A program made the position numbers and the translations under genes. A stretch of 5,819 nt of DNA from Methanospirillum sp. (GTDB lineage Archaea > Halobacteriota > Methanomicrobia > Methanomicrobiales > Methanospirillaceae): assembly GCA_028695895.1 (NCBI GenBank), contig JAQVIE010000092.1, positions 1-5,819 of the forward strand, given 5' to 3'. The notes beneath the pieces were generated by a model, which was not told where the DNA came from, searched no databases, and worked only from the letters and a program-made list of their open reading frames with translations. Below are positions 172-5,819 of the stretch, in pieces (the stretch's first letter is position 1; the number at the start of each line of letters is the position of its first letter).

Positions 172-975
172 ATGCTGAATGCGGTATGTGCGAGGCAAGT
201 TCACATTATCCCATTGGGCTATGAATTTGACAGAGCTGTTCGCCCTTTTGATGAACGGCATGCTGATCGTATTCATTTAATCACAATGGATGAAATGGAT
301 AAATATTCGTCTCCTAATGAACAGGCACTAACAAAAAAACAACGTCATTTCGATCAATTAGTCAAAAATTATATAGATAGCCTTGGAATTGAGATAGTGC
401 TTCACCATGCAGATATGTTTGACATACTATCCATGATGTCATTAATGTCACAAATAATAAAAGATGAAAAGGAAAAACACAGTGAAATTTTTGTAAACAT
501 GTCTGCTTGTGGCAGGTTTACTTCTTTTGCAGTTACACAGGCAGCAATGGCCCACCAGGTAAAACTCTACTATGTCAGGGCAGACCGGTATTCACAAAAT
601 AAGAAAGAAACTGAAGAACATGGCCTTTCAATATGCAATTCATGTAATATCTGGAATTTGGATAATTTCATGTTTGATCTGCCATCCGGTCTTGATCGAA
701 TGATACTATTGAAAATTTTTCAAAAACCTGATGGCCTTTTTGGAGAGGAGCTACTTCATTCAATTATCAATGAAGGAGTAAAAGGTTATGAAATAAAATT
801 TTGGGAGCTGCCAGTTATTGAAAGGAGAAGATATCAATCAAATTACCTGACAAAACTGAGGAAAGGGCCTATTGAACGACTGGTGAAATCCGGTTATATC
901 ACGAAAAAACAGGCCGGAAGAAGGATGGTACTACATATTACATCATCAGGCAGGTATGTAGCCAGTGTTTGTTAA
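172..975 (+). CDS. CARF-domain winged-helix transcriptional regulator (HFX_2341/DUF6293-like)
   Basis: A 267-residue predicted cytoplasmic DNA-binding regulator. The N-terminal half looks like a CARF-type Rossmann domain. It has a first strand VHIIPLGYEFDR (10-21), a second strand RIHLIT (33-38), the loop and helix VNMSACGRFTSFAVTQAAMAH (108-128, the usual ligand-binding region of the fold), and strand KLYYVRADRY (131-140). The C-terminal part (about 174-264) reads as a winged helix: helices at 176-200, a basic probable recognition segment around 218-240, and the wing RRMVLHITSSGRY (250-262). A CxxC at 155-158 has no obvious partner pair. ATG 172 is the only ATG in the open frame upstream of the conserved first strand, and it fits a leaderless start after the TATA box. 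The gene lies just upstream of the type I-C operon with its own promoter, so it probably controls cas expression in response to a nucleotide ligand. That role is inferred from family and position. The fold assignment is more secure than the ligand, which cannot be told from sequence. Confidence 0.8.
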   Translation: MLNAVCARQVHIIPLGYEFDRAVRPFDERHADRIHLITMDEMDKYSSPNEQALTKKQRHFDQLVKNYIDSLGIEIVLHHADMFDILSMMSLMSQIIKDEKEKHSEIFVNMSACGRFTSFAVTQAAMAHQVKLYYVRADRYSQNKKETEEHGLSICNSCNIWNLDNFMFDLPSGLDRMILLKIFQKPDGLFGEELLHSIINEGVKGYEIKFWELPVIERRRYQSNYLTKLRKGPIERLVKSGYITKKQAGRRMVLHITSSGRYVASVC

Positions 976-1080: not shown

Positions 1081-3264
1081 ATGTATTATGCTCATACTAC
1101 AGATAAATCTGACAAATCCGACTGGCAACTTCTTATTAATCATTTAACTGAGGTTGCTTCTCTCTCTTCCTCTTTTGCTGCAGAATTTAACGCAGGAGAA
1201 CTGGCATTCATTGCCGGTATTTTTCACGATATTGGTAAATATTCGGAAAAGTTTCAAAAAAGACTTGAAGGTTCGCCAATAAAGGTGGATCATTCAACTG
1301 CGGGTGCGGTTGAAGTCTCAAAACTATATCCTTTAGCCCAGAGTATATTATTACAATACATCATTGCCGGTCATCATACAGGACTATTAAATTATGGAAA
1401 TCCGGAGTGCGGACTTTGCAGACGGTTAAATAATCCTGTTCTGGAAGATTATTCAAAATATAAGGATGAGGTGACAGTCCCTGAGATAGTTATTTCCAGG
1501 CTTCCAATCCGTCCATTGTCAGGTATGAACGGATTTTCCATCTCATTTTTTATTCGTATGCTATTTTCCTGTCTTGTTGATGCAGATTCGCTTAATACTG
1601 AAGCATTTATGAATCCAAAACTGGCTTCGATGAGAAAAGGATATGATTCACGTGAATACCTCTCTTCGGTTTTTTCAGACAATATTGCAAAAATTACAGC
1701 AGGGGCAAGTGATTCGGCTATCAATCAAAACAGGAAGAAGATTCTTGATCAATGTCTGAATAAAGCTGAACTGCCACCTGGATTCTTTTCTCTGACTGTT
1801 CCGACCGGAGGAGGAAAAACTCTCTCCTCGATGGCTTTTTCATTAAAGCATCTTTCAGTTAACAATCTCAACAGGATTTTTTATATTATCCCATATACCA
1901 GTATTATCGAGCAGAATGCAAAAATTTTCAGGGGTATATTCGGAGAGAAAAATGTCCTTGAACACCATAGTAATTATGATCCCGTAAAGGAGGATAATGA
2001 TGATTTTGAGGAAAAACAGGATCGGTATAAAGTATCCTCGGAAAACTGGGATATTCCAATAACTGTTACAACCAATGTGCAATTCTTCGAGTCCCTTTTC
2101 GCTCATAAACGATCACGATGCAGAAAATTGCATAATCTCACTAATAGTATCATAATCCTTGATGAAGCCCAAATGCTTCCAACAGAATTTTTAAAACCTT
2201 CATTGCAGGCATTGTCTGAATTAGTGGTAAATTATGGGTCAACGGTTGTGTTATGCACTGCTACTCAACCTAAAATTGGCGATCTCATTGATAAAAGTCT
2301 TCACATAACTGAGATAATGTCAGACCCACAGGAATTGTACAAGCAGTTCAAACGTGTTCAGGTGAAACAACTTGGAAGACTTTCAGATAAAGAACTGGTA
2401 GACTGTCTCATGCAGCATTACCAGATGCTTTGTATTGTCAATACCAGGAAGCATGCCCAGGTATTATTTGATGAATTGTCCGAATACGGCAATGTGTATC
2501 ACCTTAGTGCAAAGATGTGCCCTGTTCACAGGAGAAAAATTCTTACTGAAATCAGAGAAAATTTAGCAAATGGCCATGAATGTCGTGTCATCTCAACCCA
2601 GTTGATTGAGGCTGGGGTTGATGTGGATTTCCCTGTTGTATACCGGGCAATGACAGGTATTGACTCAATTGCCCAGGCAGCAGGGAGATGTAACCGTGAA
2701 GGAAAACATCAGATTGGAGAGGTGTTCATTTTTTCATCTACTGAAAAACATGGAAAACCTACAAGCGGCTGGCAGAGCAGACTGGCAGAAATTGGAGAGA
2801 TGGTATTAGAATCTCATGAAGATCCTCTCTCCCTTCAGGCTATTGATGAATATTTTTCCAGGTTGTATTTTTATGAGGGAGATGACGGGCTTGATCAGAA
2901 AAATATTTTGAATTTGCTTAAAGGGGGAAATAATGGACTTGATTTTCCATTTGAGGATATAAGTTATGCTTTCAGGTATATTGAGGGAGGTACCCGCGAT
3001 GTGATTGTTCCATATGACAAAGATGCAGAAAAGGTGATTGACAAGCTAAGAAAAATCGGTTTTCCTGGGAATTTTGTAAGAAAATTACAGGGATACACAG
3101 TTAATATTTATGCTCATGAGTTTCGTGAATTGGAACAGTCAGGAGCTCTTGAGACAGTTGGTGAACGGTTTCACATACTTGTGAATCCGGGATTGTATAG
3201 TGAGCATACCGGCCTTGTCCGTGTTTCTGGAGATGGTTATGATGGAAGGTTATTAATTACGTAG
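1081..3264 (+). CDS. cas3: CRISPR-associated helicase/nuclease Cas3, type I-C
   Basis: A 727-residue HD nuclease fused to a superfamily 2 helicase, recruited by the type I effector complex to unwind and degrade target DNA. HD domain: H21, HDIGKYS (49-55, with H49 and D50), VDHSTAG (69-75), AGHHTG (96-101) and the metal-site aspartate in LVDADSLNTE (165-174). Helicase: Walker A TVPTGGGKT (239-247), DEAQ box (361-364), motif III CTATQP (392-397), the motif V region STQLIEAGVDVDFP (505-518) and motif VI QAAGRCNREG (532-541). All expected catalytic motifs are intact, and the length is in the usual range for I-C Cas3. The stretch after the HHT motif has a CxxC (110-113) without a partner pair. The start is supported by AAGGTG 7 bases upstream, and an in-frame TGA at 1057-1059 excludes a longer N-terminus. 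It ends in TAG, 8 bases before the preferred cas5 start. Order and neighbours (cas5c, cas8c) place it in subtype I-C. Confidence 0.96.
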   Translation: MYYAHTTDKSDKSDWQLLINHLTEVASLSSSFAAEFNAGELAFIAGIFHDIGKYSEKFQKRLEGSPIKVDHSTAGAVEVSKLYPLAQSILLQYIIAGHHTGLLNYGNPECGLCRRLNNPVLEDYSKYKDEVTVPEIVISRLPIRPLSGMNGFSISFFIRMLFSCLVDADSLNTEAFMNPKLASMRKGYDSREYLSSVFSDNIAKITAGASDSAINQNRKKILDQCLNKAELPPGFFSLTVPTGGGKTLSSMAFSLKHLSVNNLNRIFYIIPYTSIIEQNAKIFRGIFGEKNVLEHHSNYDPVKEDNDDFEEKQDRYKVSSENWDIPITVTTNVQFFESLFAHKRSRCRKLHNLTNSIIILDEAQMLPTEFLKPSLQALSELVVNYGSTVVLCTATQPKIGDLIDKSLHITEIMSDPQELYKQFKRVQVKQLGRLSDKELVDCLMQHYQMLCIVNTRKHAQVLFDELSEYGNVYHLSAKMCPVHRRKILTEIRENLANGHECRVISTQLIEAGVDVDFPVVYRAMTGIDSIAQAAGRCNREGKHQIGEVFIFSSTEKHGKPTSGWQSRLAEIGEMVLESHEDPLSLQAIDEYFSRLYFYEGDDGLDQKNILNLLKGGNNGLDFPFEDISYAFRYIEGGTRDVIVPYDKDAEKVIDKLRKIGFPGNFVRKLQGYTVNIYAHEFRELEQSGALETVGERFHILVNPGLYSEHTGLVRVSGDGYDGRLLIT

Positions 3265-3267
3265 GTG
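3263..3267 (+). promoter_or_regulatory. Ribosome binding site that decides the cas5c start
   Basis: AGGTG overlaps the cas3 stop codon and lies 5 bases before ATG 3273. The alternative GTG at 3267 would overlap this site and has no well-spaced site of its own (GGAAGG at 3244-3249 is 17 bases away). This favours the ATG. Confidence 0.6.
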
Positions 3268-3272
3268 TGGAT

Positions 3273-3935
3273 ATGGGATTTGGAATAAAACTTAAGGTCT
3301 GGGGGGACTATGCTTGTTTTTCCAGACCGGAAATGAAGGTTGAACGGGTGAGTTATGATGTCATGACTCCTTCAGCAGCAAGAGGGATTCTTGATGCTAT
3401 TTACTGGAAACCCGCAATCAGATGGATAATTGATCGCATTCATGTTATCAACCCGATTCAGTTTGATAATATCCGACGAAATGAGGTTGAAGGGACAATT
3501 TCGGCTAATAAAGTAAAAAGTGCCTTAAAGGGTTCTGACGTTGCTTTGTTTCAGGATTCGAATGCAGACAGGCAGCAACGTGCCTCATATGTCCTTCGCA
3601 ATGTCTGTTATTGCATTGATGCTCATTTTGAAATAACAGATAAAGCTGGATCAAGCGATACCGTTGAAAAACATTACAATGTTGCTATTAGGAGAATGAG
3701 AAAAGGTCAGTTCTTTCATCAGCCATATTTTGGTTGCAGGGAGTTTCCGGTTAAGTTTAGTTTTGTTGAGGATTCTTTTCCTGAATCGTGTTATGCAGGA
3801 AAATCACAGGATCTTGGATTTATTCTTTATGATATTGATTTTGACAATGATATGAAGGCGGTTTTCTTCAGGGCAGAGATGGAGGATGGAGTGATTGATA
3901 TTGACAGATGCCTTAAAAGTGGAGGAGTTTCGTGA
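3273..3935 (+). CDS. cas5c: Cas5c (Cas5d/Csd-type) pre-crRNA endoribonuclease, type I-C
   Basis: A 220-residue RAMP protein. In type I-C, which lacks Cas6, Cas5c cleaves the repeat in pre-crRNA and stays on the 5' handle of the guide in Cascade. Family blocks are clear: a first RRM strand with KLKVWGDYACFSRPEMK, GILDAIYWKP (38-47), RRNEV (68-72), VEKHYN (131-136), and KGQFFHQPYFGCREF (144-158). By comparison with characterised Cas5c/Cas5d enzymes, the probable catalytic set is Y44, K133 and H134 (a Tyr-Lys-His triad in Bacillus halodurans Cas5d); all are present. ATG 3273 is preferred over GTG 3267, which would add two residues, because of the spacing of AGGTG. The gene follows cas3 closely and its TGA stop overlaps the GTG start of cas8c by 4 bases, which indicates translational coupling. 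Confidence 0.94.
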   Translation: MGFGIKLKVWGDYACFSRPEMKVERVSYDVMTPSAARGILDAIYWKPAIRWIIDRIHVINPIQFDNIRRNEVEGTISANKVKSALKGSDVALFQDSNADRQQRASYVLRNVCYCIDAHFEITDKAGSSDTVEKHYNVAIRRMRKGQFFHQPYFGCREFPVKFSFVEDSFPESCYAGKSQDLGFILYDIDFDNDMKAVFFRAEMEDGVIDIDRCLKSGGVS

Positions 3936-5755
3936 TTATTCAGGCTCTTAATCAATATTATGATATCTTATCAAATGATGAAGAGTGTTCGATTCCAAGG
4001 AAAGGTTTTAGCACTGCAAAAGTATCTTTTGCCATTAATCTCTCTCCGGAAGGTCAGCTGAAACATATTATTGATATCCGAACCAAAGAGAAGAATCCAA
4101 GGCCAAAGGAGGTTATAGTTCCTAAACAGGCCAGTCGTTCAGGAGCAGGATGCAATCCGTATTTTTTGTGTGATAATGAAAAAAACATATTTGGAATTGA
4201 GTATGTAAAAAAGAAAGATAGGAATAAAATTCTGAACGATTCTTCTAAATTACAGGTAATTCTTGAAGATACCGGAGAGGATGCTGTTGTTGTAACAAAA
4301 CGTTCAAAAAAATGTTTTGAAGCGTTTCGATCACTCCATATCGAAATTCTTGAAAATGTAGATGGTGTGGAAGCTAAAGCATTGTTATCATTTTTAAAGA
4401 GCTGGAATCCGGAAGATTTTCTTTCCCATCCCAAAATACTTGAAAATAAAGTAGATATTTTAAAAGGAGCTTTTTTCGTATTTGAAGTCTCTGGATCCTA
4501 TCTCCATAAATTACCTGAATTGAAAAAGGTCTGGGAGATTAGTTCAGAGGTTCAAAACGCGGAGAAAATAAATTCAGCACAATGTCTGGTAACCGGAAAG
4601 GTTGAGCCCATATCTCGGATTCATCAGAAGATTAAAAGCGTTTCAGGGGCGCAAAGTGCAGGGGCGTCACTTATCAGTTTTGATAAACAGGCATTTTGTT
4701 CTTATGGTAAAGAGCAGAGTTTTAACGCACCAATCGGAGTGACGGCAGAATTCAAGTACACAACAATATTGAATTATCTTCTTGCAAAGCCTAAAAATCG
4801 GTTACTGGTAGCAGACAGTACTGTCGTTTTCTGGGCAGAAGCCTCTGATGACACATATGAAAATCTTGCTTTATCTCTTTTAAACCCTCCTTCTCTTGCA
4901 GATAATTCTGATAAAGGGAGTTTAGAAACAGATGAAAAACGGGTTAATGATGAAAGAACCATCCAGCTGATAGGTGATATCCTAACAAAGGTTCGAAATG
5001 CAAACCCTCTTGATTCAAAAACGATTGGGGCTGATCCAAAGACGCAATTTTATATTCTTGGTCTTTCTCCCAACAATGCACGACTGGCGGTAAGGTTTTG
5101 GTACAGGAACTCTTATGGAAATTTTATTGAAAGGATTGCCAGGCATCATCTGGATCTCGAGGTCGTTAAGGCAGATTTTGATCCGCCTTTCCTTTCTATT
5201 TTCCGTCTGTTGAAAGAGACGGTTCCAAAAACCGTTGAAAGGGGGGAGGCTTCTCCTATTTTAGGTGGGCTTATGTTGAATGCCGTTTTAAACGGGACTC
5301 AATACCCTATTCAGATGTATTATGCAATTTTAAATCGTGTACGGGTTGAAGGCATTATTAATTTCGCTCGTGCAGGGTTTATCAAGGCATATTTATTGAG
5401 ATTATCCAGGGCAGGAATAACATCAGTACAAGAGAGTATGATTACCATGAGTCTGAATGAGAAAAATACAAATGTTCCGTACCGGCTTGGCCGGTTATTT
5501 GCAGTTCTTGAAAAGGTGCAGAGTGAGACGAACAAAGAGATGGGCAGTACTATTACAAGTAAATATTTTAGTAGTGCATCTGCCACTCCGGCGGTCGTGT
5601 TTCCGGTGCTGTTAAAACTTGCCCAGCATCATATCGCAAAATCGGACTGGGGTTTTAAGACCAACCAGGCGATTGAGGAAATTTTATCTGGAGTAGATGT
5701 TTTTCCAGCGTTTTTAAATCTTGAAGATCAGGGAATGTTTATGCTGGGATTTTAG
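3932..5755 (+). CDS. cas8c: Cas8c (Csd1) large subunit of type I-C Cascade, ending at a suspect TAG
   Basis: A 607-residue large subunit that recognises the PAM and supports Cas3 recruitment. Csd1 family blocks appear in order: NPYFLCDN (75-82), CLVTG (218-222), SGAQSAGASLISF (238-250), AFCSYGKEQ (254-262), NAPIG (265-269), FKYTTILNYLLA (274-285), then a helical C-terminal part with LGRLFAVLEK (519-528) and KYFSSASATPAVVFP (544-558). The GTG start is supported by GGAGGA (3921-3926) 5 bases upstream and by the 4-base overlap with cas5c. The C-terminus is odd: the frame stops at TAG directly after MFMLGF, whereas Cas8c proteins typically read LGYYHQ there, and the same frame continues with a family-like tail to TAA 5804-5806. 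The full-length ancestral protein would be 624 residues, so the annotated form may lack its last 17. Loss of that tail may be tolerated; this is not known. The family call is very secure, the true end is not. Confidence 0.95.
   Translation: MIIQALNQYYDILSNDEECSIPRKGFSTAKVSFAINLSPEGQLKHIIDIRTKEKNPRPKEVIVPKQASRSGAGCNPYFLCDNEKNIFGIEYVKKKDRNKILNDSSKLQVILEDTGEDAVVVTKRSKKCFEAFRSLHIEILENVDGVEAKALLSFLKSWNPEDFLSHPKILENKVDILKGAFFVFEVSGSYLHKLPELKKVWEISSEVQNAEKINSAQCLVTGKVEPISRIHQKIKSVSGAQSAGASLISFDKQAFCSYGKEQSFNAPIGVTAEFKYTTILNYLLAKPKNRLLVADSTVVFWAEASDDTYENLALSLLNPPSLADNSDKGSLETDEKRVNDERTIQLIGDILTKVRNANPLDSKTIGADPKTQFYILGLSPNNARLAVRFWYRNSYGNFIERIARHHLDLEVVKADFDPPFLSIFRLLKETVPKTVERGEASPILGGLMLNAVLNGTQYPIQMYYAILNRVRVEGIINFARAGFIKAYLLRLSRAGITSVQESMITMSLNEKNTNVPYRLGRLFAVLEKVQSETNKEMGSTITSKYFSSASATPAVVFPVLLKLAQHHIAKSDWGFKTNQAIEEILSGVDVFPAFLNLEDQGMFMLGF
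5263..5267 (+). promoter_or_regulatory. Internal ribosome binding site within cas8c
   Basis: AGGTG lies 5 bases before the in-frame ATG at 5273 (Met448 of Cas8c), exactly the motif and spacing used for cas5c (AGGTG, 5 bases, ATG). A purine tract, GGGGGGAGG (5241-5249), sits further upstream and could pair with CTCC (5253-5256) in a small hairpin. This is the best-placed site I found among the in-frame start codons of the last third of cas8c. Confidence 0.45.
5273..5755 (+). CDS. cas11c: Candidate internally started small subunit Cas11c
   Basis: In type I-C systems the small subunit Cas11c is made by internal translation from the 3' part of cas8c, in the same frame. Here ATG 5273 has a well-spaced AGGTG and would give a 160-residue mainly helical protein (177 if the TAG at 5753 is read through), identical to Cas8c 448-607. 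As I recall, studied Cas11c proteins are nearer 120-130 residues, so a later start is also possible: Met462 (5315, no site), Leu489 TTG (5396, weak AAGG 8 bases upstream), Met503 (5438) or Met506 (5447, weak AGAGAG 10 bases upstream). Existence of a Cas11c is expected from the subtype; this exact start is an inference. It would carry the same doubtful C-terminus as Cas8c. Confidence 0.4.
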   Translation: MLNAVLNGTQYPIQMYYAILNRVRVEGIINFARAGFIKAYLLRLSRAGITSVQESMITMSLNEKNTNVPYRLGRLFAVLEKVQSETNKEMGSTITSKYFSSASATPAVVFPVLLKLAQHHIAKSDWGFKTNQAIEEILSGVDVFPAFLNLEDQGMFMLGF

Positions 5756-5806
5756 CATCAGAAACAGGCGTTTTTTGTAAAAAAATCTGACTCAAAGGAG
5801 GAGTAA
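5753..5806 (+). other. Family-like cas8c tail after an in-frame TAG
   Basis: Past the TAG at 5753-5755 the cas8c frame reads HQKQAFFVKKSDSKEE and ends with TAA at 5804-5806. With the residues before the stop this gives LGF-stop-HQKQAFF, which lines up with the LGYYHQRQ-type ending known from Cas8c/Csd1; the stop takes the place of the second tyrosine. One base change (TAT or TAC to TAG) explains it. The restored end lies 3 bases before the cas7 ATG and contains the cas7 ribosome binding site, matching the tight packing of the other genes. The function of the tail is not known to me. Nonsense mutation, sequence error or UAG read-through cannot be told apart from this window. Confidence 0.75.
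5797..5801 (+). promoter_or_regulatory. Ribosome binding site of the next gene (cas7c)
   Basis: GGAGG, within AAAGGAGGAG (5794-5803 region), lies 8 bases before the ATG at 5810. It is the longest match to the anti-Shine-Dalgarno in the window, fitting a subunit needed in many copies per complex. Confidence 0.65.
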
Positions 5807-5809
5807 ATT

Positions 5810-5819
5810 ATGAGTGAAG
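5810..5819 (+). CDS. cas7c: Start of the next gene, by position cas7c (Csd2); truncated by the window edge
   Basis: Only ATG-AGT-GAA and one further base are present (Met-Ser-Glu). The call rests on the strong ribosome binding site and on the standard type I-C order cas3-cas5c-cas8c-cas7c. Cas7c forms the backbone that coats the crRNA spacer. No family residue can be seen in the fragment itself. Confidence 0.6.

What the first reader, a model, noticed from the sequence alone, without database searches (positions are those of the whole stretch)
5735..5806. cas8c is interrupted by an in-frame TAG in place of a conserved C-terminal tyrosine
Seen: the cas8c frame stops at TAG 5753-5755 after MFMLGF, then continues with HQKQAFFVKKSDSKEE to TAA 5804-5806, 3 bases before the cas7 ATG. 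From family knowledge: Cas8c/Csd1 proteins typically end with a GYYHQ-type motif followed by a polar/aromatic tail, so the TAG replaces the second tyrosine. Inference: a one-base nonsense mutation, an assembly error, or a UAG that is decoded (suppressor tRNA, or pyrrolysine if the host has pyl genes). The tail still looks coding, so the change is recent or the codon is read. cas3 in the same operon also ends in TAG, apparently as a true stop, which argues against general UAG reassignment.
Basis: partly seen in the sequence, partly recalled or inferred. Interest (0 to 1): 0.85.

Follow-up and report, generated by a model that had tools for sequence, protein, structure and literature searches.

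The report
Contig-end stop contradicted by sister contig
A stop codon near the end of a CRISPR gene in a draft genome, likely of a methane-making archaeon, is contradicted by a second contig of the same draft that reads the usual tyrosine there, so it is likely a base error (or, less likely, a rare strain's broken copy) and not a new way of reading the genetic code.

Summary
In detail: the cas8c frame (3932-5755) stops at TAG 5753-5755 and stays open beyond it to TAA 5804-5806. The stop does not hold up. The window is a whole contig (C171) of a fragmented draft genome, and its last 139 bases also form the end of contig C311 of the same assembly. The two copies differ at one base, window 5755, where C311 reads TAT (Tyr). 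C311 continues the operon with cas7-cas4-cas1-cas2 and the start of a CRISPR array. Tyr is at this position in 120 of 120 listed homologues and in 16 of 16 related genomes whose match covers the C-terminus. Conflicting contig ends are common in this assembly: 13 of 15 end overlaps among 122 of 319 contigs are inexact, and one other creates a stop. No pyrrolysyl-tRNA synthetase was found in 100 family genomes, and no amber tRNA among 26 tRNAs of this 76%-complete genome. Most likely a base error at the contig end; a real nonsense allele in a minority strain is the live rival; decoded UAG is very unlikely. Ordinary type I-C locus, low interest.

The parts
3932..5755 (+). cas8c/csd1 as read in this contig, 607 aa, GTG start, closed by TAG 5753-5755
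   Evidence: ORF; TIGR01863 401.3 bits, best stretch profile 98-573 of 588; with the TAG read through 427.6 bits, 98-587 of 588
5753..5755 (+). the TAG; contig C311 of the same assembly reads TAT here, the only mismatch of the 139-base overlap
5756..5806 (+). open continuation HQKQAFFVKKSDSKEE to TAA; identical in C311; last codons overlap the putative cas7 ribosome-binding site
5681..5819 (+). stretch present twice in the assembly: end of this contig (C171) and end of C311, 138 of 139 bases identical
5447..5755 (+). region equivalent to the small subunit Cas11c (candidate internal start ATG 5447, codon 506); the TAG would shorten it too
   Evidence: Cas11 chains 7kha_K and 8g9s_H align to residues 507-619 and 510-618 of the query; ATG at 5447; the start is inferred from the alignment
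1081..3264 (+). cas3, ends in TAG, apparently an ordinary stop
3267..3935 (+). cas5c
5810..5819 (+). first ten bases of cas7c, which continues in C311

Best explanation
The TAG in this contig is contradicted by contig C311 of the same assembly, which reads TAT (Tyr) at the site, and is likely a base error near the end of this contig. Shown: the two contig ends share 139 bases and differ only at the third base of this codon, and Tyr is found at the site in every homologue listed. Inferred: reads were too few here to outvote one wrong base. The conflicting base then kept the assembler from joining two contigs that belong together, which is why the window ends just after cas8c. Cas8c would then be an ordinary 624-residue protein with an intact C-terminal helix, and nothing needs to decode the UAG.
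For: C311 overlap with one mismatch, at 5755. The variant lies 64 bases from the end of this contig and 74 bases from the end of C311 (from the coordinates). C311 continues with cas7, cas4, cas1, cas2 and repeats, so the two contigs fit together as one operon. Tyr in 120 of 120 listed homologues (2565 passed the threshold, 120 were listed). TAT or TAC in 16 of 16 related genomes whose match covers the C-terminus (of 60 others searched; codons) and in 8 of 8 named loci (two of the eight are from one isolate, and one may be the same genome as a row). Homologue P0001 (96% identical) differs at 26 of 624 positions; one is this stop and one is the start codon, and none of the others lies beyond residue 394. 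Among 122 of 319 contigs, 15 end overlaps were found and 13 of them are inexact. One (C178/C294) carries a second contig-end stop; its five mismatches are all T>G or C>A, and one changes the D of a CCDSR motif. The change here is T>G as well. The longest exact end overlap is 127 bases, which suggests an assembler word of 127, so that a matching 139-base overlap would have been joined (inference from one case).
Against: No reads or coverage are held, so neither the error nor the low coverage is shown directly. Most scored mismatches in the other end overlaps look like real strain differences: 37 of 55 coding mismatches are synonymous (20 of 36 without the most divergent pair), and 32 of 56 mismatches are transitions. 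Real polymorphism is therefore likely common in this assembly, and a real minority-strain nonsense allele is not excluded. The T>G or C>A class is not a general mark of these contig ends: it makes up 9 of 56 mismatches, 5 of them in the one pair C178/C294, so the shared class is weak support. No other assembly of the same strain was found; P0001 is 96% identical and its source is not given.
Confidence: 0.62

Rival explanations
1. Real nonsense allele: a minority strain of the sampled population carries TAG, while another strain carries TAT. Cas8c and the small subunit Cas11c made from the same gene would both lose their last 17 residues, including about half of the predicted terminal helix, so interference would probably be weakened or lost in that strain.
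For: Strain-type variation is plentiful at contig ends of this assembly (37 of 55 scored coding mismatches synonymous). The overlap is otherwise identical in both contigs, as expected for a recent change. Residue 608 lies inside the predicted last helix, 597-615.
Against: Nonsense changes at a conserved residue are rare among segregating variants (general knowledge), and the site sits at a contig end, with another error-like contig-end stop in the same assembly.
Confidence: 0.33
2. The UAG is decoded (pyrrolysine, or an amber suppressor tRNA), so the full 624-residue protein is made from the TAG allele.
For: The frame stays open to a second stop just before cas7 and the tail matches relatives.
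Against: PylS: 0 of 100 genomes drawn from the family at E<=1e-20, with M. acetivorans found as control; the own genome has only four weak hits of 20-33 bits against a cut-off of 178. No CTA anticodon among 26 tRNAs. TAG closes 35 of 428 ORFs of at least 150 aa in 122 contigs, with no longer open stretch behind TAG (median 9.5 codons) than behind TAA (12) or TGA (13). The other contig has a sense codon. Limits: the genome is 76% complete, and the tRNA list has no tRNA for Tyr, Trp, Phe, His, Cys or Ile, so a missed tRNA is possible.
Confidence: 0.02
3. A normal, functional short form: Cas8c of this lineage simply ends at LGF.
For: The truncated protein still passes the Csd1 cut-off (401.3 against 218.65 bits).
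Against: Of 120 listed homologues, none ends before the Tyr: the shortest tail has 12 residues after it. In the same genome C311 carries the long form.
Confidence: 0.01

Closest known systems
Type I-C Cas8c/Csd1 (TIGR01863, PF09709), e.g. the solved chains 8dej_I and 7kha_I (Desulfovibrio vulgaris; species recalled)
   Same: Match over the curated cut-off; same GYYHQ-type terminal motif once the TAG is passed (GFYHQ); same C-terminal domain as the small subunit
   Different: This contig alone has a stop in place of the second aromatic residue of the motif; the sister contig does not
Cas8c of Methanospirillum (P0004, 79%; P0009, 66%)
   Same: Same length class (624-625 aa), Tyr at the site, same KEE ending
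   Different: No stop
UAG decoding as pyrrolysine (methanogens with pylTSBCD; recalled)
   Same: An in-frame TAG in a gene whose relatives are from methanogens
   Different: No PylS in the 100 family genomes searched, no amber tRNA found, and the site is a sense codon in the sister contig

Membership tests
Type I-C Cas8c/Csd1 | Match to TIGR01863 above its curated cut-off | tested here: met
   401.3 bits (427.6 with the TAG read through) against 218.65
Type I-C Cas8c/Csd1 | Locus order cas3-cas5-cas8-cas7-cas4-cas1-cas2 with an array | tested here: met
   Window has cas3, cas5c, cas8c; C311 has cas7, cas4, cas1c, cas2 and two 37-nt repeats. The link between the contigs rests on the 139-base overlap.
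Type I-C Cas8c/Csd1 | Terminal G[YF]YHQ motif | tested here: inconclusive
   Not met in the window as written (stop at the Y), met in C311; Tyr in 120 of 120 listed homologues
Pyrrolysine-decoding organism | Pyrrolysyl-tRNA synthetase (TIGR02367) | tested here: not met
   0 of 100 genomes drawn from the family, the own one included, at E<=1e-20 (58 of them at least 90% complete); control M. acetivorans positive. Own genome 76% complete; its four weak hits are far below the cut-off.
Pyrrolysine-decoding organism or amber suppression | tRNA with CUA anticodon | tested here: inconclusive
   None among 26 tRNAs found, but tRNAs for six amino acids are also missing from the list
Contig-end conflict of an assembly | Second copy of the stretch in the same assembly with a different base, both at contig ends | tested here: met

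The most novel reading that the evidence does not exclude
The population carries a true on/off polymorphism of its CRISPR immunity: one strain with an amber codon at a conserved tyrosine that shortens Cas8c and every Cas11c copy at once, living beside a strain with the intact gene, so that one base switches the whole type I-C effector off and could be switched back by reversion or suppression.
Probability: 0.3. Interest if true: 0.25.

Novelty: not a real feature. Interest (0 to 1): 0.06.

Why it matters
It matters mainly as a caution. In fragmented draft genomes, an in-frame stop close to a contig end should first be checked against the ends of the other contigs of the same assembly before recoding or gene decay is invoked. 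If the allele were real, it would be a natural single-base loss-of-function variant that would hit the large and the small Cascade subunit together, because both are made from one gene in type I-C systems (PMC7684278, passages).

Tried and rejected
Decoded UAG: rejected on absence of PylS in the family genomes searched, no amber tRNA found, ordinary use of TAG as stop and the sense codon in C311. Naturally short Cas8c: rejected, 120 of 120 listed homologues continue past the site. Overlap at the other end of the window: none. Close relatives at DNA level: of 12 genus genomes (own included) only G008 besides the own one has the region, at 82%, so no second assembly of the same species was available there. 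A viral-contig scan for the exact site with either base found nothing. Papers: searches on assembly breaks by strain variation, Illumina substitution bias and errors at contig ends (no paper) gave nothing that I used; only listings were seen. The searches on type I-C small subunits and on pyrrolysine with Methanospirillum were seen as listings. PMC7684278 was seen as five passages. No other paper was opened.

Limits of the counts. One search covered the 120 listed of 2565 homologues. One search covered 61 genomes including the own one; 44 of the other 60 have no match and say nothing about the site. In one search a motif pattern was used on 27 relatives' loci plus one duplicate (L059, same place as L006); among L006-L024 and L025-L032 four did not match the pattern. 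L019 and L021 were then read separately and have TAT; L022 and L024 hold N-terminal pieces of the match and gave no reading of the site; L023 is C311 itself. In one search an overlap counted as an end overlap if it began or ended within 30 bases of both contig ends; the 30-base exact one may be chance. The window/C311 pair and the one overlap with a gap (C178/C223) got no codon scoring; the 55 scored mismatches come from the other 11 inexact overlaps, and 19 of them are from one divergent pair (C285/C289). The counts 37, 17 and 1, and 9 of 56 for T>G or C>A, were tallied by hand from the printed rows. One search left out the overlap with a gap.

Full report
What is there. The window is a complete contig, C171, of a draft genome (G000: 1,698,346 bases, 319 contigs, 75.85% complete). 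It carries a regulator-like gene (172-975), cas3 (1081-3264), cas5c (3267-3935) and cas8c (3932-5755), and ends ten bases into cas7. The closest named homologues of its Cas8c are from Methanospirillum (79% and 66%); that the host is a relative of that genus is an inference from this.

The second copy. Searching the last 520 bases of the window in its own genome finds contig C311 (3388 b), whose end overlaps window 5681-5819 on the reverse strand, 139 bases long, 138 identical. The one difference is at window 5755, the third base of the TAG: C311 reads TAT, tyrosine. C311 then continues the operon with cas7/csd2, cas4, cas1c and cas2, and at its other end begins a CRISPR array of which two 37-nt repeats are visible. 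So the two contigs fit together as one ordinary type I-C locus, and the assembly holds two conflicting readings of this codon.

Which reading fits. Tyr is at this position in 120 of the 120 homologues listed (of 2565 above threshold). In the DNA of relatives the codon is TAT or TAC in 16 of the 16 genomes whose match covers the C-terminus (60 other genomes were searched, 44 without a match), and in 8 of the 8 named loci. Two of those eight are from one isolate, and one may be the same genome as a row. Y608-H609-Q610 are invariant in an alignment of 42 of the homologues with the window, whose TAG was read as Y by choice. The closest homologue, P0001 (96%), differs from the window at 26 positions, of which the last before the stop is residue 394. 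With the TAG the match to the Csd1 family ends at profile position 573 of 588; read through, it reaches 587. A predicted model (mean pLDDT 80.8) puts residue 608 inside the last helix, 597-615, with block means of 91 for residues 601-610 and 64 for 611-620. In the solved type I-C complex the small subunit is the C-terminal domain of Cas8c, residues 489-612 of the D. vulgaris protein (PMC7684278, passages read), and a solved Cas11 chain (7kha_K) aligns to residues 507-619 here. A real stop would therefore shorten both subunits.

Is the conflict unusual in this assembly? No. I compared 122 of the 319 contigs with each other. Fifteen pairs overlap at their ends; 13 of these overlaps are inexact, with 1 to 19 mismatches. 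Two are exact, one of 127 bases and one of 30. In the 11 inexact overlaps that could be scored by codon (the window's own and one with a gap were not), 37 of 55 mismatches are synonymous, 17 missense and 1 nonsense (20 of 36 synonymous without the most divergent pair). So strain variation is likely common. The nonsense case, the end of C178 against C294, looks like error: five mismatches, all T>G or C>A, changing a D in a CCDSR motif (known to me as a carbonic anhydrase motif, recalled) and creating a TGA. The change in the window is of the same class, T>G, 64 bases from the contig end. This class makes up only 9 of the 56 mismatches, five of them in that one pair, so the likeness is weak support. 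The exact overlap of 127 bases suggests an assembler word length of 127. If so, a matching 139-base overlap would have been joined, and the one-base conflict itself explains why the window stops here. This is inference.

Decoding of UAG. The pyrrolysyl-tRNA synthetase model finds nothing in 100 genomes drawn from the family, the own one and 11 others of its genus included, at E<=1e-20, while the control Methanosarcina acetivorans is found. In the own genome only four weak hits far below the cut-off appear. Of 26 tRNAs found, none has a CTA anticodon; the list is incomplete, with no tRNA for Tyr, Trp, Phe, His, Cys or Ile. TAG closes 35 of 428 ORFs of 150 aa or more in the 122 contigs, and the open stretch behind TAG is no longer than behind TAA or TGA. 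cas3 in the same operon ends in TAG.

Verdict. The stop is in the letters of this contig but is contradicted by its own assembly. A base error at a contig end is the likeliest cause (0.62) and a real nonsense allele in a minority strain is second (0.33). Recoding is very unlikely (0.02). Only the reads can separate the first two, and they are not held here. Confidences are my judgement, not computed.

Noticed in passing
window 172-975 (+): Gene upstream of cas3 matches HFX_2341_N (PF19810, 112.6 bits) and the DUF6293 C-terminal winged helix (PF22665, 38.5 bits): a likely transcriptional regulator beside the type I-C operon.
   Followed up: no
L003 (contig C311) 1-3388: Continuation of the operon: cas7, cas4, cas1c, cas2 and the start of a CRISPR array with two 37-nt repeats at 24-60 and 90-126, spacing 66.
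   Followed up: yes
L122 (contig C178) 5400-5624 against L101 (contig C294) 1-225: A second contig-end conflict that creates a stop (TGA in C178, TGC in C294) in a gene with a CCDSR motif; all five mismatches are T>G or C>A, which looks like sequencing error.
   Followed up: partly
L039 (contig C301) 1406-1532 and 1633-1759: Exact direct repeat of 127 bases, the same length as the longest exact contig-end overlap (C198/C219): possibly an assembler word-length artefact.
   Followed up: no
window 5447 (+): ATG at codon 506 of cas8c, in the place where solved Cas11c chains begin in the alignment: candidate internal start of the small subunit.
   Followed up: partly
window 5795-5803 (+): AAGGAGGAG, the last codons of the cas8c tail (KEE), looks like the ribosome-binding site of cas7, so conservation there may not be for protein alone.
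   Followed up: no
L092 (contig C285) against L096 (contig C289): Contig-end overlap of 249 bases with 19 mismatches (92.4% identity), 17 of them synonymous: a sign of a second, more distant strain in this assembly.
   Followed up: no
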